Below are positions 11,216 through 51,799 of a DNA stretch of 64,000 nucleotides, one piece after another (position 1 is the stretch's first letter; each line of letters opens with the position of its first letter). Source of the stretch: Thamnaconus septentrionalis (Eukaryota; Chordata; Actinopteri; Tetraodontiformes; Monacanthidae); the NCBI GenBank assembly GCA_009823395.1, contig CM020509.1, positions 6,405,001-6,469,000 on the forward strand, read 5' to 3'. The notes under the pieces are model-generated. The model saw nothing but the letters and a program-made list of their open reading frames with translations. It did no database searches and was not told the DNA's origin. Position numbers and translations under genes: made by a program.

Positions 11216-14193
<2,978 letters not shown>

Positions 14194-17517: not shown

Positions 17518-17913
17518 ATGAGCAAGAGGAGGAGATAGAGAGCGAAAGGGTGGGGAGGTGCAGCAAGAGGCACTGAGGAGGGCGGGAGGGAGGTGGATGT
17601 GCGAGGCGTGAGAGAGTGAGGGGAGAGAGAGACCGATAGAGGCAGAGTGAGAGGCAGAGAGAGAGAGAGTGAGTGAGAGAGAGAGAGAGTGAGTGAGAGA
17701 GATAGATGCAGAGTGAGAGAGAGAGACGCAGAGAGAGAAAGTGAGTGAGAGAGATAGAGGCAGAGTGAGAGAGAGTGTGTGTGTGAGAGAGAGAGAGAGT
17801 GACTGAGAGAGATAGAGGCAGAGAGAGAGAGAGAGAGTGTGTGTGTGTGAGAGAGAGAGAGGCAGAGTGTGTGAGAGAGAGAGAGAGAGAGTGAGAGAGA
17901 GGGAGTGGGAGAG
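17507..17913. repeat. GA-rich purine tract, about 400 bp
   Basis: The plus strand is nearly all purine, built from GA runs broken by GTGA, GATAGAGGCAGA and short GTGT blocks. The motif GAGATAGAGGCAGAG recurs several times (17750-17765, 17808-17823 and a variant at 17634-17649), so part of the tract is itself a tandem repeat. Mirror-symmetric GA runs can form triplex DNA. Confidence 0.93.
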
Positions 17914-24127: not shown

Positions 24128-25387
24128 CGTTTGAGACAATGCACATAAAATATCCAGCACAAAACAAGGTCGCATCCGGATGATGATCCGTCCTTGGTAC
24201 AAACACACGATCGCAATTGAAAGGCGACGTCCCGCCGTACCGGTGTTGCTGTTCCAGTTCTGTTCTTCGGCTGATCGTGGCTCATTGTGGCTGCGCACAA
24301 TGTCGCGTCCAGTCACGCGGCCGCCACCTGCGTAGTACGAGTGGTTAGAAGAACGCACGTCACCCATTTACTAGCGTGTGTGCTCTCGATGGTTGACAAA
24401 AGGCGTTTTCGTGAATGGACACCATGTCCGTGGAGTGCGGAAGGTTTCGATGTTATGTACCTCACTGATCAATAGACCATTTAGCGGCTAGATTGGCAGA
24501 GACTGCAGAGCGGGCTGACGTGTGTGTCTTGTGAAATGAACGCTATGCAAACAAGAATGGTGCTTTGCCTTCAAGAGCTTCAATAGGGCCGTCCAACACT
24601 TGCACACCTATCCGGAAAACTAATGTTGTTCTCTCGCCCTTTGAGCTAAAAGGTTCAACTTGATGACTGTCTTAATGCCGTTCTATTAATGAGACCTAGT
24701 GATGGGCAAGTTATTCTCGTGCAGATATTTGACAGGGATTAACCATATGCCTGAGCCTTGTTTCAAGAAGAACAAATAATCCCCAAGCCCAATTCATAAT
24801 GTACGCTCACGCTGTGAGGCAGTCGGCCAGTCGCCAGAAAGGTTAGTTTCCTTATTTACAACCACCGAGGCACTTTTTTCAAAGTTTGACAGAGCAGAGT
24901 ACCACTCGCATGTCTTTCATTCCAACAACAGTGGGAATGTCAGCACATGGAAAGCTCCTGTGCTCTCTGTGGATCCTCCAACAGGAGCGACTGTGTCCTG
25001 CGCTGGACGAGTTCCCACCTCCCTGCTCCTGCCAGACCATGAAAGGCTCTCAACAGGACGCTGGGCAGGCACTTATTAGTGCGGGTCACCGGTCACGGCC
25101 TCCTCTGGGCTTGAGATGAAAGTACAGACTGGACGTTTGTACAAGTTTGTTAGTTTACTTGTGAGTTGCCGGCCTTAACGAGCCTGTCGGCGGTCGATGG
25201 CGGCGGAGGCGTCCTCGCTGCGAGGGGAGGAAGTAACTCGTCTCTGCGGGTGGTTTTGTGCGGCCCGGCGTCAAGCTGTGTCTCTTGGGTCCCTATATAT
25301 ATAAACAGGGTCAGGATCAAACGGTTTATATTTGGATTGACTTTAATTTGGCAAATTAGTTTGAATATTGTTTTTTACAATTTTAAT
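23078..25387. other. Non-coding stretch with small microsatellites
   Basis: It contains a GA run (23300-23327), GT and G runs (23641-23667), a SINE-tail-like ATGGATGGATGG (24013-24025) and an AT run (24099-24127). Open frames are at most 130 codons. A C-rich to G-rich patch at 25180-25290 precedes the tandem array. Confidence 0.6.
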
Positions 25388-25740
25388 TAGGGACTGAGCC
25401 AGTGAAAGACCAGTTCGAAACGAACTGGTCTTTTCAATGGCGTAAAGACCCTATTGTATTTGCTATGTTTATTAGGGACTGAGCCAGTGAAAGACCAGTT
25501 CGAAGCGAACTGGTCTTTCGCAATGGCGAAAAGACCCTATTGTATTTGCTATGTTTATTAGGGACTGAGCCAGTGAAAGACCAGTTCGAAACGAACTGGT
25601 CTTTCGCAATGGCGAAAGACCCTATTGTATTTGCTATGTTTATTCTTATTATTAGGGACTGAGCCAGCGGAAGACCAGTTCGAACGAACTGGTCTTTCGT
25701 GAATGGCTTAAAGACCCTATTGTTTTTTGCTATGTTTATT
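25388..25740 (+). repeat. Four tandem 86-bp hairpin modules (unit 1 head)
   Basis: GGGACTGAGCC occurs at 25390, 25475, 25561 and 25655, giving periods of 85, 86 and 94 bp. Each module contains GACCAGTTCG, a 2-3 base loop, and CGAACTGGTC, forming a perfect stem of 10 to 14 bp (25404-25434 in the first). Loops differ (AAA, AAG, AA) while the arms stay paired. Each module ends GACCCTATTG then TTTGCTATGTTTATT. Confidence 0.95.
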
Positions 25741-27009
25741 CTTATTATTTACAAAACATGCTCCAAAACTCACCAAATTCGGTATGGAGGTAGAAACTGG
25801 TACACAATGAAAGAAAATGAAGACAAAAAGGCAAATTCCACTTCTAGCGCCCCTAGAGGGGTCCAACTACAATTGTCCAAAAATTACAAAAGGCCCTAGC
25901 TACCACTAGGAAGGTCGAAAAAGATGGGGAAACACCCACGCGTTCGTCTCTTCAAGCCCGACATTTTCAGACGCTCTAACCTATGTCGCCCGACAAACAG
26001 GGAGTGAGTTATTCCACTTTTCGTTTTCACATTAAAAGCACAAGGCTCAGAAAGCGCCAAGTCCGACGGGCTTGAAAATTCAGTATGACATAGACTGGAC
26101 GTCCATTACAAAGAATCATCAAAAAAAAAAGTGATTTTTCCAACCGTTTGCTTTTGGCGCTCTCAAGAGGCGTCCAACTACAATTGGCCACTAATTAAAA
26201 TGGCCCTAGCTTCCACTAGGAAGGTCGAGAAAAAGATGGGGAAAACACCCACGCTTTACGTCTCTTCAAGCCCGACATTTTGCACCTCTAACCTTTGTCC
26301 CCCGACAAACAAGAAGTGAGTTATTCCCACTTGTTTGGTTTTCAAATTAAAATCATAAGGCTCAGAAAGCGCAAGTCCAACGGGCTTGAAAATTCAGTAA
26401 GACATAGTCTGGACCTTCATTACAAAGAATCATCAAAAACATTTTTGCTTTTTCCAACCGTTTTCGTGCAACGGCCCTCCAACCAGACTCTAACTCATAA
26501 CTCTTCATATTTATGGATATAGTTAGAACATTGGATCGGCTTTGACAATGCAAGATCCACTATAAAGGACACTGATTGCGTAACATTCTTTTTTTCTTTT
26601 TTTTTTCCTCAACTGGCAGACAGAACATGATCAAAGGCCATTAAAACATGTCAGTCATAAATGCTGGCTTGTGATTGAACAACGCCCCATAACAACAGAC
26701 ATTTAACTGCAGCACAGCCTAGCTAAAAGATGATACTAGTATCTTTCATGTAGACGCCGAAATGGCTGAGTTCTAAGCTTAGGTGTCCAAGGTTGCAAAA
26801 ACGCCTTTCTATCTCTCCTCTTTAACACACATAAATGGCTGCAGTTTCCTTTAGGGAAGTCGTACAGACGTCATTCAAACATCCACGTGTTTGTCTCATC
26901 AGTCGCCGGGCGTCGGCAGAGGACGGGGGCAATTGCAGGCGGTCGGGGTCATCGGGGTCGCGTCGGCGCGGCGGCTCAGTCCCGCTCAATCCTGCTTGCA
27001 GGGCTAGTT
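25388..27009 (+). mobile_element. Array unit 1
   Basis: This unit has four hairpin modules, a short TTATTATT run, the body from ACAAAACATGCTCC (25751), and two full internal 310-bp repeats starting near 25847 and 26157 with a third start near 26467. The right end has GGCTCAGTCCC at 26973-26983, the palindrome at 26991-27002 and CTAGTT to 27009. Its right part carries the variant GGTGTCCAAGGTTGCAAAAA (26782-26801), shared only with unit 6, and TTTAGGGAAGTCG, shared only with unit 7. It therefore belongs to the older-looking subtype. Confidence 0.9.
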
Positions 27010-28296
27010 ATTATTATTATTATTTACAAAACATGCTCCAAAACCCACCAAATTCGGCACGGAGGTAGAAACTGGTACACAATGAAAGAAAATGAAGACA
27101 AAAAGGCAAAATTCCACTTCTAGCGCCCCTAGAGGGGTCCAACCTGGTGTCCAAAAACTACAAATGGCCCTAGCTTCCACTAGGAAGGTCGAAAAAGATG
27201 GGGAAACACCCGCGCGTTCGTCTCTTCAAGCCCGACATTTAAATGACGCTCTAACCTATGTCGCCCGACAAACAGGAAGTGAATTATTCCCACTTTTCGT
27301 TTTCACGTTAAAAGCATACAGCTCAGAAAGCGCAAGTCCGACGGGCTTGAAAATTCAGTATGACATAGACTGGACCTTCATTACAAAGAATCATCAAAAA
27401 AAAAAAGGATGCTTCCAACCATTTTCGTGCGCCCCCAAAAGGCGTCCAACTACAATTGACCACAAATTACAAATGGCCCTAGCTTCCACTAGGAAGGTCC
27501 AAAAAGATGGGGAAAACACCCATGCGTTGCTCGTCTCTTCAAGCCCGACATTTTGCACCTCTAACCTTTGTCCCCGACAAACAGGAAGTGAGTTATTCCC
27601 ACGTTTTTGGTTTTCAAATTAAAATCATAACGCTCAGAAAGCGCAAGTCCAACGGGCTTGAAAATTCAGTAAGACATAGTCTGGACCTTCATTACAAAGA
27701 ATCATCAAAAACATTTTTGCTTTTTCCAACGTTTGCGTGCAACGGCCCCCAACCAGACTCTAAGCCATAACTCTTCATATTTGTGGATATAGTTAGAACG
27801 TTGGATCGGCTTTGACAATGCAAGATCCACTATAAAGGACACTGATTGCGTAACATTCTTTTTTTTCTTTTTTTTTTTTTCCTCAACTGGCAGGCAGAAC
27901 ATGATCGAAGGCTATTAAAACATGTCAGTCATAAATGCTGGCTTGTGATTGAACAACGCCCCATAACAACAGACATTTAACTGCAGCACAGCCTAGCTAA
28001 AGATGATACCAGTATCTTTCATGTAGGCGCCCGAAATGGCTGAGTTCTAAGCTTAGGTTGCTCCTGCTCGTTTGGAGGCTTAACGCCTTTCTCTATCTCT
28101 CCCTCTTTTTAACACACATAAATGGCTGCAGTTTCCTCTAGGAAATCGTACAGACGTCATTCAAACATCCACGTGTTTGTCTCATCAGTCGCCGGGCGCC
28201 GGCAGAGGACGGGGGCAATTGCAGGCGGTCGGGGTCATCGGGGTCGTCGCGTCGGCGGCGGCTCAGTCCCGCTCAATCCTGCTTGCAGGGCTAGTT
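27010..28296 (+). mobile_element. Array unit 2, no hairpin module
   Basis: A 1287-bp unit that begins directly with a TTA run and ACAAAACATGCTCC, without any 86-bp module. Internal repeats start at 27123 (GCGCCCCTAGAGGGG) and 27429 (GCGCCCCCAAAAGG), with the third start at 27739. GGCTCAGTCCC is at 28260-28270. It carries the GGTTGCTCCTGCTCGTTTGG variant that marks units 2 to 5. Confidence 0.92.
27123..27738 (+). repeat. Internal 310-bp direct repeats (example, unit 2)
   Basis: Two consecutive copies share, in order: TCCAACTACAATTG-type start, ACAAATGGCCCTAGCTTCC, CACTAGGAAGGTC, AGATGGGG, TCTCTTCAAGCCCGACATTT, CGACAAACAGGAAGTGA, GCTCAGAAAGCGCAAGTCC, GGGCTTGAAAATTCAGTA, GACATAGTCTGGACC and ACAAAGAATCATCAAAAA. 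The copies differ at fixed places (ACCTATGTCGCC against ACCTTTGTCCCC), and every unit keeps the same two types in the same order. The duplication therefore predates amplification of the array. Confidence 0.92.
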
Positions 28297-29677
28297 CTTA
28301 TTAGGGACTGAGCCAGTGAAAGACCAGTTCGAAGCGAACTGGTCTTTTCGCAATGGCTAAAGACCCTATTGTATTTGCTATGTTTATTCTTATTATTATT
28401 ATTATTATTATTTACAAAACATGCTCCAAAACCCACCAAATTCGGCACGGAGGTAGAAACTGGTACACAATGAAAGAAAATGAAGACAAAAAAGGCAAAA
28501 TTCCACTTCTAGCGCCCCTAGAGGGTCCAACTACAATTGTCCAAAAACTACAAATGGCCCTAGCTTCCACTAGGAAGGTCGAAAAAGATGGGGAAACACC
28601 CACGCGTTCGTCTCTTCAAGCCCGACATTTCATGACGCTCTAACCTATGTCGCCCGACAAACAGGAAGTGAATTATTCCCACTTTTCGTTTTCACGTTAA
28701 AAGCATACAGCTCAGAAAGCGCAAGTCCGACGGGCTTAAAAATTCAGTATGACATAGACTGGACCTTCATTACAAAGAATCATCAAAAAAAAAAAGGGAT
28801 GCTTCCAACCATTTTCGTGCGCCCCCAAAAGGCGTCCAACTACAATTGACCACAAATTACAAATGGCCCTAGCTTCCACTAGGAAGGTCCAAAAAAGATG
28901 GGGAAAACACCCACGCGTTCGTCTCTTCAAGCCCGACATTTTGCACCTCTAACCTTTGTCCCCCGACAAACAGGAAGTGAGTTATTCCCACGTTTTTGGT
29001 TTTCAAATTAAAATCATAACGCTCAGAAAGCGCAAGTCCAACGGGCTTGAAAATTCAGTAAGACATAGTCTGGACCTTCATTACAAAGAATCATCAAAAA
29101 CATTTTGCTTTTTCCAACGTTTTGCAACGGCCCCCAACCAGACTCTAAGCCATAACTCTTCATATTTGTGGATATAGTTAGAACGTTGGATCGGCTTTGA
29201 CAATGCAAGATCCACTATAAAGGACACTGATTGCGTAACATTCTTTTTTCTTTTTTTTTTTCCTCAACTGGCAGGCAGAACATGATCGAAGGCTATTAAA
29301 ACATGTCAGTCATAAATGCTGGCTTGTGATTGAACAACGCCCCATAACAACAGACATTTAACTGCAGCACAGCCTAGCTAAAAGATGATACCAGTATCTT
29401 TCATGTAGACGCCTTGAAATGGCTGAGTTCTAAGCTTAGGTTGCTCCTGCTCGTTTGGAGGCTTAACGCCTTTCTCTATCTCTCCTCTTTTTAACACACA
29501 TAAATGGCTGCAGTTTCCTCTAGGGAAATCGTACAGGCGTCATTCAAACATCACGTGTTTGTCTCATCAGTCGCCGGGCGTCGGCAGAGGACGGGGGCAA
29601 TTGCAGGCGGTCGGGGTCATCGGGGTCGCGTCGGCGCGGGCGGCTCAGTCCCGCTCAATCCTGCTTGCAGGGCTAGT
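28297..29677 (+). mobile_element. Array unit 3, one hairpin module
   Basis: One 86-bp module (28301-28388, GGGACTGAGCC at 28304) with the paired GACCAGTTCG / CGAACTGGTC arms is followed by a TTATTA run and a 1.29-kb body very similar to units 2, 4 and 5. GGCTCAGTCCC is at 29642-29652. The right end CTAGT joins the left end of unit 4 with no spacer. Confidence 0.92.
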
Positions 29678-31133
29678 TAGGGACTGAGCCAGCGGAAGAC
29701 CAGTTCGAAGCGAACTGGTCTTTTCGCAATGGCGAAAAGACCCTATTGTATTTGCTATGTTTATTAGGGACTGAGCCAGTGGAAGACCAGTTCGAACGAA
29801 CTGGTCTTTCATAATGGCGAAAAGACCCTATTGTATTTGCTATGTTTATTCTTATTATTATTATTATTATTATTTACAAAACATGCTCCAAAACCCACCA
29901 AATTCGGCACGGAGGTAGAAACTGGTACACAATGAAAGAAAATGAAGACAAAAAGGCAAAATTCCACTTCTAGCGCCCCTAGAGGGGTCCAACCACAATT
30001 GTCCAAAACTACAAATGGCCCTAGCTTCCACTAGGAAGGTCGAAAAGATGGGGAAACACCCACGCTCGTCTCTTCAAGCCCGACACATTTCGTGCGCTCT
30101 AACCTATGTCGCCCGACAAACAGGGAGTGAATTATTCCCACTTTTCGTTTTCACGTTAAAGCATACAGCTCAGAAAGCGCAAGTCCGACGGGCTTGAAAA
30201 TTCAGTATGACATAGACTGGACCTTCATTACAAAGAATCATCAAAAAAAAAAAGGGATGCTTCCAACCATTTTCGTGCGCCCCAAAAGGCGCCCAACTAC
30301 AATTGACCACAAATTACAAATGGCCCTAGCTTCCACTAGGAAGGTCCAAAAAGATGGGAAAACACCCACGCGTTCGTCTCTTCAAGCCCGACATTTTGCA
30401 CCTCTAACCTTTGTCCCCGACAAACAGGAAGTGAGTTATTCCACGTTTTGGTTTTCAAATTAAAATCATAACGCTCAGAAAGCGTAAGTCCAACGGGCTT
30501 GAAAATTCAGTAAGACATAGTCTGGACCTTCATTACAAAGAATCATCAAAAACATTTTTGCTTTTTCCAACTGCTTTTCGTGCGGCCCCCAACCAGACTC
30601 TAAGCCATAACTCTTCATATTTGTGGATATAGTTAGAACGTTGGATCGGCTTTGACAATGCAAGATCCACTATAAAGGACACTGATTGCGTAACATTCTT
30701 TTTCTTTTTTTTTTTCCTCAACTGGCAGGCAGAACATGATCGAAGGCTATTAAAACATGTCAGTCATAAATGCTGGCTTGTGATTGAACAACGCCCATAA
30801 CAACAGACATTTAACTGCAGCACAGCCTAGCTAAAAGATGATACCAGTATCTTTCATGTAGACGCCGAAATGGCTGAGTTCTAAGCTTAGGTTGCTCCTG
30901 CTCGTTTGGAGGCTTAACGCCTTTCTCTATCTCTCCTCTTTTTAACACACATAAATGGCTGCAGTTTCCTCTAGGGAAATCGTACAGACGTCATTCAAAC
31001 ATCCACGTGTTTGTCTCATCAGTCGCCGGGCGTCGGCAGAGGACGGGGGGCAATTGCAGGCGGTCGGGGGTCATCGGGGGTCGCGTCGGCCGCGGCGGCT
31101 CAGTCCCGCTCAATCCTGCTTGCAGGGCTAGTT
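29678..31133 (+). mobile_element. Array unit 4, two hairpin modules
   Basis: Two modules (GGGACTGAGCC at 29680 and 29767, period 87) are followed by a TTATTA run and a 1.28-kb body. GGCTCAGTCCC is at 31097-31107. The stems of both modules are intact, with loops AAG and AA. Confidence 0.92.
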
Positions 31134-32413
31134 ATTATTATTATTATTTACAAAACATGCTCCAAAACCCACCAAATTCGGCACGGAGGTAGAAACTGGT
31201 ACACAATGAAAGAAAATGAAGACAAAAAGGCAAAATTCCACTTCTAGCGCCCCCTAGAGGGGTCCAACTACAATTGTCCAAAAACTACAAATGGCCCTAG
31301 CTTCCACTAGGAAGGTCGAAAAAAGATGGGGGAAACACCCACGCGTTCGTCTCTTCAAGCCCGACATTTCGTACGCTCTAACCTATGTCGCCCGACAAAC
31401 AGGAAGTGAATTATTCCCACTTTTCGTTTTCACGTTAAAAGCATACAGCTCAGAAAGCGCAAGTCCGACGGGCTTAAAAATTCAGTATGACATAGACTGG
31501 ACCTTCATTACAAAGAATCATCAAAAAAAAAAGGGATGCTTCCAACCATTTTCGTGCGCCTCAAAAGGCGCCCAACTACAATTGACCACAAATTACAAAT
31601 GGCCCTAGCTTCCACTAGGAAGGTCCAAAAAAGATGGGGAAAACACCCACGCGTTCGTCTCTTCAAGCCCGACATTTTGCACCTCTAACCTTTGTCCCCC
31701 GACAAACAGGAAGTGAGTTATTCCCACGTTTTTGGTTTTCAAATTAAAATCATAACGCTCAGAAAGCGCAAGTCCAACGGGCTTGAAAATTCAGTAAGAC
31801 ATAGTCTGGACCTTCATTACAAAGAATCATCAAAACATTTTTGCTTTTTCCAACCGTTTCGTGCAACGGCCCCCAACCAGACTCTAAGCCATAACTCTTC
31901 ATATTTGTGGATATAGTTAGAACGTTGGATCGGCTTTGACAATGCAAGATCCACTATAAAGGACACTGATTGCGTAACATTCTTTTTTCTTTTTCTTTTC
32001 CTCAACTGGCAGGCAGAACATGATCGAAGGCTATTAAAACATGTCAGTCATAAATGCTGGCTTGTGATTGAACAACGCCCATAACAACAGACATTTAACT
32101 GCAGCACAGCCTAGCTAAAAGATGATACCAGTATCTTTCATGTAGACGCCGAAATGGCTGAGTTCTAAGCTTAGGTTGCTCCTGCTCGTTTGGAGGCTTA
32201 ACGCCTTTCTATCTCTCCTCTTTTTAACACACATAAATGGCTGCAGTTTCCTCTAGGGAAATCGTACAGACGTCATTCAAACATCCACGTGTTTGTCTCA
32301 TCAGTCGCCGGGCGCCGGCAGAGGACGGGGGCAATTGCAGGCGGTCGGGGTCATCGGGGTCGCGCGGCGCGCGGGCGGCTCAGTCCCGCTCAATCCTGCT
32401 TGCAGGGCTAGTT
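31134..32413 (+). mobile_element. Array unit 5, no hairpin module
   Basis: A 1280-bp unit that, like unit 2, goes straight from CTAGTT to a TTA run and the body. Internal repeats start near 31247 and 31557. GGCTCAGTCCC is at 32377-32387. It shares the unit 2-5 variant in its right half. Confidence 0.92.
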
Positions 32414-33494
32414 CTTATTATTATTTACAAAACTTGCTCCAAAACTCACCAAATTCGCACGGAGGTAGAAACTGGTACACAATGAAAGAAAATGAAGACA
32501 AAAAGGCAAAATTCCACTTCTAGCGCCTTCTACAGGGGTCCAACTACAATTGTCCAAAAATTACAAATGGCCCTAGCTTCCACTAGGAAGGTCGAAAAAG
32601 ATGGGGAAACACCCACGCGTTCGTCTCTTCAAGCCCGACATTTCGTGACGCTCTAACCTATGTCCCCGAAAAACAGCGAGAGAGTTATTCCCACTTTTCG
32701 TTTTCACGTTAAAATCATAAGGCTCAGAAAGCGCAAGTCCGACGGGCTTGAAAATTCAGTATGACATAGACTGGACGTTCATTACAAAGAATCATCAAAA
32801 AAAAGAGGATTTTTCCAACCGTTTTCAAAGTGCGCCCCAAGAGGCGTCCAACTACATTGGCCACAAATTACAAATGGCCCTAGCTTCCACTAGGAAGGTC
32901 GAAAAAGATGGGGAAAACACCCGCGTTCGACTCTTCAAGCCCGACATTTTGGACCTCTAACCTTTGTCCCCGACAAACAGGAAGTGAGTTATTCCCACTT
33001 GTTTGGTGTTCACATTAAAATCATAACGCTCAGAAAGCGCAAGTCCGACGGGCTTGAAAATTCAGTAAGACATAGTCTGGACCTTCATTACAAAGAATCA
33101 TCAAAAACATTTTTGCTTTTTCCAACCGTTTTCGTGCAACGGCCCCCCAACCAGACTCTAAGACATAACTCTTCATATTTGTGGATATAGTTAGAACGTT
33201 GGATCGGCTTTGACAATGCAAGATCCACTATAAAGGAAACTGATTGCGTAACATTCTTTTTCCTTTTTTTTTCTCCTCAACTGGCAGGCAGAACATGATC
33301 AAAGGCTATTAAAACATGTCAGTCATAAATGCTGGCTTGTGATTGAACAACGCCCCATAACAACAGACATTTAACTGCAGCACAGCCTAGCTAAAAGATG
33401 ATACTAGTATCTTTCATGTAGACGCCGAAATGGCTGAGTTCTAAGCTTAGGTGTCCAAGGTTGCAAAAACGCCTTTTCTATCTCTCCCTCTTTT
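32414..33494 (+). mobile_element. Array unit 6, right end missing
   Basis: The body starts after CTAGTTCTTATTATT and carries the first internal repeat (altered at 32524, GCGCCTTCTACAGGGG), the second, and the unit 1-like variant TGTCCAAGGTTGCAAAAACG. It then stops at CCCTCTTTT (about 33494), where the sequence jumps to the middle of another unit. The right 190 bp, with the inverted motif and palindrome, is lost. Confidence 0.9.
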
Positions 33495-34408
33495 GTATGA
33501 CATAGACTGGACGTTCATTACAAAGAATCATCAAAAAAAGAGGGATTTTTCCAACCGTTTTAAATGCGCCCCAAGAGGCGTCCAACTACAATTGGCCACA
33601 AATTACAAATGGCCCTAGCTTCCACTAGTAAGGTCGAAAAAAGATGGGGAAAACACCCACGCGTTCGTCTCTTCAAGCCCGACATTTTGGACCTCTAACC
33701 TTTGTCCCCCGACAAACAGAGAGTGAATTATTCCCACGTTTTTGGTTTTCACATTAAAATCATAAGGCTCAGAAAGCGCAAGTCCAACGGGCTTGAAAAT
33801 TCAGTAAGACATAGTCTGGACCTTCATTACAAAGAATCATCAAAAACATTTTTGCTTTTTCCAACCGTTTTCGTGCAACGGCCCTCCAACCAGACTCTAA
33901 GTCATAACTCTTCATATTTGTGGATATAGTTAGAACGTTGGATCGGCTTTGACAATGCAAGATCCACTATAAAGGACACTGACTGCATAACATTCTTTTT
34001 CCTTTTTTTGCCTCAACTGGCAGGCAGAACATGCTCAAAGGCTATGAAAACATGTCAGTCATAAATGCTGGCTTGTGATTGAACAACGCCCCATAACAAC
34101 AGCCATTTAACTGCAGCACAGCCTAGCTAAAAGATGATACCAGTATCTTTCATGTAGACGCCGAAATGGCTGAGTTCCAAGCGTAGGTTGCTCCTGCTCG
34201 GTTGGAGCCCTACCGCCTTTCTCTATCTCTCCTCTTTTTAACACACATAAATGGCTGCAGTTTCCTTTAGGGAAGTCGTACAGACGTCATTCAAACATCC
34301 ACGTGTTTGTCTCATCAGTCGCCGGGCGTCGGCAGAGGTCGGGGGTCACCGGGGGTCGCGTCGGCCGTGGCGGCTCAGTCCCGTTTAATCCTGCTTGCAG
34401 GGCTAGTT
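33495..34408 (+). mobile_element. Array unit 7, left end missing
   Basis: It begins at GTATGACATAGACTGG, within the first internal repeat, so it lacks the left end, hairpin modules and TTA run. The remaining body is complete to GGCTCAGTCCC (34372-34382) and CTAGTT. Its right part mixes features: TTGCTCCTGCTCGGTTGG like units 2-5, and TTTAGGGAAGTCG like unit 1. It has a short deletion in the G-rich segment near 34337. Confidence 0.9.
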
Positions 34409-51538: not shown

Positions 51539-51760
51539 CTTCTTCTTCTTCTTCTTCTTCTTCTTCTTCTTCTTCTTCTTCTTCTTCTTCTTCTTCTTCT
51601 TCTTCTTCTTCTTCTTCTTCTTCTTCTTCTTCTTCTTCTTCTTCTTCTTCTTCTTCTTCTTCTTCTTCTTCTTCTTCTTCTTCTCCTCCTCCTCCTCCTC
51701 CTCCTCCTCCTCCTCCTCCTCCTCCTCCTCCTCCTCCTCCTCCTCCTCCTCCTCCTCCTT
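51539..51760. repeat. (CTT)n/(CTC)n homopyrimidine tract, 220 bp
   Basis: About 48 CTT units (to 51683) change abruptly to about 25 CTC units (to 51758), then TTCTCC and an ATT run. The plus strand is wholly pyrimidine for about 220 bp. It reads as poly-Leu, poly-Phe or poly-Ser depending on frame and poly-Lys/Glu on the other strand. None of these is a gene. Confidence 0.98.
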
Positions 51761-51799
51761 CTCCTTCTCCATCATCTCATCATTATTATTATTATTATG

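What the first reader, a model, noticed from the sequence alone, without database searches (positions are those of the whole stretch)
25388..34408. Seven-unit head-to-tail array with Helentron-like ends
Seen: the unit is about 1.28 kb, in one direction, with GGGACTGAGCC at the left end and the exact inverse GGCTCAGTCCC about 25 bp inside the right end, then a CCTGC-TT-GCAGG palindrome and CTAGTT. Known: Helitron2/Helentron non-autonomous elements have asymmetric terminal inverted repeats, a 3' palindrome, internal tandem repeats and TT insertion. Inferred: this is a trans-mobilised rolling-circle element that has formed a 9-kb array. I cannot tell whether this family has been described in fish.
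Basis: partly seen in the sequence, partly recalled or inferred. Interest (0 to 1): 0.8.

Follow-up and report, generated by a model that had tools for sequence, protein, structure and literature searches.

The report
Jumping DNA nested inside itself
A small mobile DNA element of the Helentron kind seems to carry its own preferred landing site just inside its left end, so new copies insert into old ones like Russian dolls and leave what looks like a simple tandem repeat.

Summary
The array at 25387-34408 is real: six complete right ends and seven 85-bp left repeats (L), one direction. It belongs to a dispersed family: 115 matches, the window's included, with 39 of 523 candidates scored. Of 35 places read, 13 are solo copies with near-identical ends. 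A probable autonomous Helentron (OTU, DUF6570, Rep, PIF1 helicase, endonuclease in one 2690-aa frame) shares the right-end motif; its left end was not seen.

The array is probably not a rolling-circle concatemer but serial nested self-insertion. New copies enter the TT/(ATT)n tract just after an older copy's L, so left ends stack outside and L-less bodies follow, like brackets. Removing complete inner copies collapses three of six fully read arrays to a bare TT; the window array does so if one extra L is dropped; two lack outer Ls. All 13 solo copies have one L; all 15 arrays with a readable left end and at least two bodies seen start with two or more. A sister family stacks its left ends the same way.

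Helitron self-insertion was proposed before, in Fusarium (PMC5148889). A self-carried landing site and bracket-decodable arrays I found in none of my searches.

The parts
25377..25386 (+). host sequence up to the insertion point; joined to 34407 it gives the inferred empty site acaattttaa^TTAATATTTGC
25387..25471 (+). L1, outermost left repeat (subTIR TTAGGGACTGAGCC plus an internal palindrome), short tail GTTTA^; pairs with the last body, 32414-34408
25472..25557 (+). L2, left repeat, short tail; its tract resumes as CTTA at 28297 and its body at 31134-32413
25558..25651 (+). L3, left repeat with long tail GTTTATTCTTATTA^; pairs with body 27010-28296, which resumes with ATT
25652..27007 (+). 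innermost complete copy (subfamily S1): L4, tract, body, right end
26973..27009 (+). right end R1: GGCTCAGTCCC subTIR, CCTGCTTGCAGG palindrome, CTAGTT
27010..28296 (+). body without its own L (subfamily S2), resumes L3; right end 28260-28296
28301..29676 (+). complete copy (S2): L5, body, right end; inserted at CTTA^TT of L2's resumed tract; right end 29642-29678
29677..29763 (+). L6, extra left repeat with no matching body; it shares one TT with the right end before it
29764..31131 (+). complete copy (S2): L7, body, right end; right end 31097-31133
31134..32413 (+). body without its own L (S2), resumes L2; right end 32377-32413
32414..34408 (+). outermost body (S3) with internal duplication at about 33495, resumes L1; right end 34372-34408; host TTAATATTTGC from 34407

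Best explanation
A non-autonomous Helentron (HINE-type) family inserts at TTA^TT, often in (ATT)n tracts. Each intact copy carries such a tract just inside its left end: L ... GTTTA^TTCTTATTATT ... body ... R. A new copy that lands there in the same strand sense splits the old one into L and body. Repeated landings give L L L L body-R body-R and so on, a bracket-like nest that reads as a head-to-tail array. The movement is probably driven in trans by an endonuclease-bearing Helentron with a matching right end. Shown by sequence: ends, target, dispersal, bracket structure, partner domains. Inferred: trans-mobilisation, the order of insertions, and rolling-circle chemistry.
For: (1) All 13 solo copies have one L; all 15 arrays with a readable left end and at least two bodies seen start with two or more; a further place (L023) has three Ls but its right part was not read, and six of the 35 places have no intact left end in the stretch read. 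(2) Excising complete inner copies, leaving one TT, collapses L030 (2 L, 2 R), the C10 array (5, 5) and the C4 array (8, 8) to a bare TT, in C4's case inside another element, F2; the window array (7, 6) collapses if the L at 29677 is dropped, the only one of the four Ls directly followed by another L whose removal restores the tract at every join. (3) The cut point in an L's tail predicts how its body resumes: long or mid tails with ATT in 6 of 6, short tails with CTT in 20 of 24 (Fisher P 3.5e-4, pairs taken as independent, 4 of 34 rows set aside). (4) In adjacent pairs the TTTTT variant of L sits on an S1 body in 16 of 17 (S1 bodies have it in 16 of 20); among 24 bracket-matched separated pairs the single S1 body falls to the single TTTTT L. 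(5) Of 46 units in arrays of three or more, 41 (body start) or 40 (body end) are closest to, or tie with, a unit in another locus. (6) Insertion sites are TTA^TT: T at -3 in 27 of 29, A at -1 in 26 of 29, two of the 29 lying in F2 elements; the element's own tract has this motif, and its asymmetry explains the single orientation (0 of 77 right ends reversed). (7) The sister family F2 stacks left ends, with GTTTA^TT joins at the one place read.
Against: Two of six fully read arrays lack outer Ls (L012 2 L to 3 R; C2 7 to 9) and the window has one L too many, which needs loss or gain among tandem Ls. In one search, 6 of 34 informative resumptions mismatch; three are a CTAGTT-A-TTAGGG join at C2, C4 and L010 where CTT is missing, one more follows from it at L010, and two in the window vanish if the L at 29677 is dropped. 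Bracket order alone is weak per array (shuffle P 0.20 to 0.66). Inner copies are not clearly younger: less diverged in 16 of 33 pairs. Four of the six window units are of one subfamily, S2. No pre-insertion allele of an array was seen.
Confidence: 0.85

Rival explanations
1. Rolling-circle concatemer: termination at the right end was bypassed and several units were laid down in one transposition.
For: Ten right-to-left joins share one TT, as a circle junction would. Tandem Helitron arrays elsewhere are explained this way (PMC4067079, passage).
Against: Arrays mix subfamilies; adjacent window units are 92-98 percent alike while each has a 98.6-99.6 percent match in another locus. Left repeats are displaced: of 50 right ends followed by another unit, 34 lead straight into a body without L. 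PMC7492417 (passage) says inner copies of such arrays are often cut at the 3' end; here inner right ends are mostly complete.
Confidence: 0.06
2. Insertion first, then unequal exchange or replication slippage between (ATT)n tracts and between tandem Ls multiplied units locally.
For: Counts of L and R differ in three of six complete arrays, so some gain or loss of L must occur. L012 has three S3 units in a row.
Against: Local multiplication predicts that neighbours are closest relatives; only 5 or 6 of 46 units have their closest relative in the same locus. It does not predict tail-to-resumption matching.
Confidence: 0.08
3. Whole nested arrays jump as single composite elements, so structure is inherited from a few founder arrays.
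For: Composite movement and multiple 5' termini were proposed for Fusarium Helitrons (PMC5148889, sections 10 and 16). The extra L at 29677 would fit a two-L element.
Against: By eye no two arrays read share a long common order (not formally tested), and the S1-like copies nested in C-type copies at C2 and L025 are not sisters in the trees. All 13 solo copies have one L.
Confidence: 0.08

Closest known systems
Helentron-derived non-autonomous elements (HINE, DINE-1), PMC4067079 (passages seen)
   Same: Subterminal inverted repeats near both ends, 3' palindrome, microsatellite in some copies, TT target, autonomous Rep-helicase-endonuclease partner.
   Different: Here the microsatellite has the motif of the target and receives further copies, giving nested arrays. 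The passages seen mention clusters and bypassed termination, not nested self-insertion at this tract.
FoHeli Helitron2 elements of Fusarium oxysporum, PMC5148889 (passages and sections 10 and 16 seen)
   Same: Asymmetric terminal inverted repeats, several 5' termini on one element with duplicated 5' pieces of about 31-85 bp, and self-insertion proposed as the cause.
   Different: There self-insertion is inferred from one nested example and from multiple 5' termini; long nested arrays and a self-carried target are not in the parts seen.
Tandem Helitron arrays in bats and plant centromeres (known here only through passages of PMC4067079, PMC5148889 and PMC7492417)
   Same: Head-to-tail copies of a rolling-circle transposon.
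   Different: Explained there by bypassed termination or a circular intermediate, with inner copies often cut at the 3' end. Here 3' ends are kept and 5' ends are displaced.
Cg_HINE elements of the Pacific oyster, PMC7492417 (passages seen)
   Same: Left flank of subTIR, inverted repeat and microsatellite; right flank of subTIR and palindrome.
   Different: There the tandem repeats are internal satellite-like monomers, not whole copies nested in the microsatellite.

Membership tests
Helentron / HINE | subterminal inverted repeats near both ends | tested here: met
   GGGACTGAGCC 3 bp from the left end and GGCTCAGTCCC 26 bp from the right end
Helentron / HINE | palindrome near the 3' end | tested here: met
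   CCTGC-TT-GCAGG shortly before the end in the right ends printed
Helentron / HINE | insertion in TT with no longer target duplication | tested here: met
   Right TT in 18 of 19 sites, left TT in the left ends printed. The joined L016 flank aligns to 38 other copies of a repeat across the junction (query 86/87 to 162-183, junction at 150; 40 of 1134 candidates scored), though only 12-33 AT-rich bases lie past it. One locus only
Helentron / HINE | autonomous partner with Rep, PIF1 helicase and endonuclease that shares both ends | tested here: inconclusive
   PF14214 six matches in the genome (0 of 14 control genomes); a 2690-aa frame with OTU, DUF6570, Helitron_like_N, PIF1, Pif1_2B and Exo_endo_phos; right-end motif shared, left end not found in 3.5 kb upstream
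Helentron / HINE | non-coding | tested here: met
   the only frame of 120 aa or more inside the array (178 aa) has no Pfam match; shorter frames were not scanned
Canonical Helitron (Helitron1; features as given in a passage of PMC5148889) | 5' TC and 3' CTRR ends, insertion in AT | tested here: not met
   the left end is TTAGGG. The right end CTAG fits CTRR and most sites are A^T, but the related autonomous and F2 right ends read CTTTAA before TT, so the fit may be coincidence
Helitron2 without endonuclease | asymmetric terminal inverted repeats, Rep-helicase only | tested here: inconclusive
   the ends fit, but the only long frame scanned carries an endonuclease domain; the partner is not proven by transposition
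Satellite DNA | copies confined to arrays of homogenised units | tested here: not met
   13 of 35 places read are solo copies and arrays mix subfamilies

The most novel reading that the evidence does not exclude
The microsatellite next to the left end of Helentron-type elements is a self-carried landing pad. The transposition machinery prefers that exact place in its own kind: in L-to-L joins the cut is at GTTTA^TT in 34 of 44, although further TTA^TT sites follow in the tract. Nested arrays would be a safe haven for new copies and a readable record of insertion, and many tandem arrays credited to rolling-circle read-through could be nests.
Probability: 0.35. Interest if true: 0.75.

Novelty: new variant of a known kind. 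Interest (0 to 1): 0.62.

Why it matters
Tandem arrays of rolling-circle transposons have been taken as a sign of bypassed termination or circular replication (PMC4067079, PMC5148889, passages). A family whose arrays decode as nested insertions gives a counter-example and a test that can be applied to other arrays. It suggests a role for the microsatellite of HINE elements. It also points to a Helentron gene with a long open frame in the same genome, with which transposition could be assayed.

Tried and rejected
Rejected: rolling-circle concatemer, satellite DNA, canonical Helitron. Age order of nested pairs gave no signal: 16 of 33 (subfamilies were binned by short motifs and 11 of 73 units stayed in a mixed bin). 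Bracket-order shuffles per array were not decisive. A Pfam scan of ten other open frames of the window found nothing (one search lists 33 frames). The autonomous left end was not found in the stretch held. Never answered: a search with the right-end DNA, a whole-genome count of right ends by pattern and a second empty-site query, L031. The insert of the C-type copies was only looked at. A TTAGGGCCTGAACC motif in that insert was left out of the L tokens by rule. Tokens came from fuzzy patterns; L037's second L was missed by the pattern and seen by blastn. Rows dropped from the Fisher test: 4 of 34, whose tail state had been set by an earlier partial resumption (2 matches, 2 mismatches). One search was a failed script, redone; one search read the loci on one strand only for frames and was redone.
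Full report
What is there. The array runs from 25387 to 34408 in the window, which is G000:C9:6405001-6469000 of an unnamed 474-Mb genome. It has six right ends and seven 85-bp left repeats (L), all in one direction. L begins TTAGGGACTGAGCC, contains the palindrome AAGACCAGTTCG..CGAACTGGTCTT, and ends GTTTA followed by a tract TTCTTATT(ATT)n. The body follows the tract. The right end is GGCTCAGTCCC .. CCTGCTTGCAGG .. CTAGTT.

A dispersed family. One unit gives 115 matches, its own place included, with 39 of 523 candidates scored. I read 35 places (the window among them). Thirteen are solo copies with one L and one right end. Fifteen are arrays with a readable left end and at least two bodies seen, and all fifteen start with two or more Ls. 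One place (L023) has three Ls but its right part was not read. Six (L009, L015, L021, L035, L039, L045) have no intact left end in the stretch read. The solo left end is the same in 13 of 13; the right end is CTAGTT in 11, CCAGTT in L031 and CTAGTA in L032. Some solo copies differ inside: L029 and L040 have internal duplications, L044 a deletion in L. Insertion sites are TTA^TT: T at -3 in 27 of 29, A at -1 in 26 of 29, right TT in 18 of 19; two of the 29 lie in F2 elements. The joined flank of L016 aligns to 38 other copies of a dispersed repeat across the junction, although only 12-33 AT-rich bases lie beyond it.

The arrays are nests. Of 50 right ends followed by another unit, 34 lead straight into a body without L, starting CTT (25), ATT (8) or TTT (1); ten are followed at once by an L that shares the TT, and six by an L after a short gap. 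Insertion into the tract after L predicts this: the old L stays outside and the old body resumes after the new right end. I removed complete inner copies one at a time and left one TT. Of six arrays read at both ends, L030, C10 and C4 collapse to a bare TT (for C4 this TT lies in a related element, F2). The window array does so if the L at 29677 is dropped; of the four Ls directly followed by another L it is the only one whose removal restores the tract at every join. L012 and C2 keep one and two bodies, so outer Ls are missing there.

Independent checks. The cut point in an L's tail predicts the start of the matched body: long or mid tails to ATT in 6 of 6, short tails to CTT in 20 of 24, Fisher P 3.5e-4 with pairs taken as independent and 4 of 34 rows set aside. 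In all, 28 of 34 resumptions match and 6 do not. In adjacent pairs the TTTTT variant of L goes with an S1 body in 16 of 17; S1 bodies have it in 16 of 20. In 24 bracket-matched separated pairs the one S1 body goes with the one TTTTT L, at the two outer ends of the C4 nest about 14 kb apart. Bodies group by subfamily across loci, and of 46 units in arrays of three or more, 41 or 40 are closest to, or tie with, another locus. Per-array bracket order by itself is weak (P 0.20-0.66), and inner copies are not clearly younger (16 of 33).

A sister family does the same. The C4 array sits in the tract of a related element F2 whose left end is TTCGGGACTGAGCC. The F2 left end has 91 matches with 40 of 221 candidates scored, many of them abutting or overlapping in stacks. 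At C12:21264 kb an F2 right end is fused to two F2 Ls with a GTTTA^TT join. Three F2 right ends stand in a row before the F1 body of L015, with no L between them in the stretch held.

The partner. PF14214 has six matches in the genome, two of them in open frames of 2690 and 2744 aa; 14 control genomes have none. The C16 frame has OTU, DUF6570, Helitron_like_N, PIF1, Pif1_2B and Exo_endo_phos domains, the domain set reported for Helentrons in the passages of PMC4067079 (OTU, Rep/helicase, endonuclease). The C12 frame was not scanned further. About 2.5 kb downstream of the C16 frame on the same strand is the right end GGCTCAGTCCCGCAAACGCTGCTTGCAGCTTTAATT, the same as that of F2 and sharing subTIR and palindrome core with the window element. 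It is followed by an F2 body without L (88 percent over 1768 bases), so this Helentron seems nested too. Its left end was not found in 3.5 kb upstream of the frame.

What is known. HINE elements with subTIRs and a 3' palindrome, TT targets, and tandem arrays explained by bypassed termination are described in PMC4067079 (passages); PMC7492417 adds the left-flank microsatellite (passages). Self-insertion giving multiple 5' termini was proposed in PMC5148889 (passages and sections 10 and 16). My literature searches listed no other paper that I recognised, from titles and abstract openings, as describing nested arrays at a self-carried tract. Most subscription journals are not held and Repbase was not searched, so a named family may exist.

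Verdict. A non-autonomous Helentron-type element whose own left-end microsatellite serves as landing site and yields nested arrays: a new variant of a known kind. The nested reading is well supported. A preference for the own site beyond TTA^TT (34 of 44 L-to-L joins at one position) is suggestive only, because tandem Ls can also multiply by exchange.

Noticed in passing
L010:4990-5759 and the C-type copies of other loci: C-type copies carry a ~770-bp unrelated stretch (up to ~1.36 kb in some) between unit positions 1075 and 787, flanked by a repeat of the element's own 787-1075; it may be a captured segment.
   Followed up: partly
L029:1625-5194, L040:1469-3557, window 32414-34408: S3 copies carry a ~740-bp internal tandem duplication, three extra copies in L029; solo copies have it, so it probably moved with the element.
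   Followed up: partly
G000:C16:19611-19619 kb and C12:21247-21248 kb: Helitron_like_N matches in open frames of 2690 aa (domains scanned) and 2744 aa (not scanned); possibly still active.
   Followed up: partly
L055:1000-2820: An old Helitron_like_N copy with a third right-end variant, GGCTCAGTCCCGCCAACCCTGCTTGCAGGTTTAATT.
   Followed up: no
window 14020-14186, 17610-17913, 51539-51770: Long microsatellites: a perfect (AT) run of 83.5 copies, an impure (GA)n stretch, and a CTT run of 48.7 copies followed by a CTC run of 29.3.
   Followed up: no
C2, C4 and L010 loci: Three arrays share a CTAGTT-A-TTAGGG join in which the CTT of the tract is missing; unexplained by simple nesting.
   Followed up: partly
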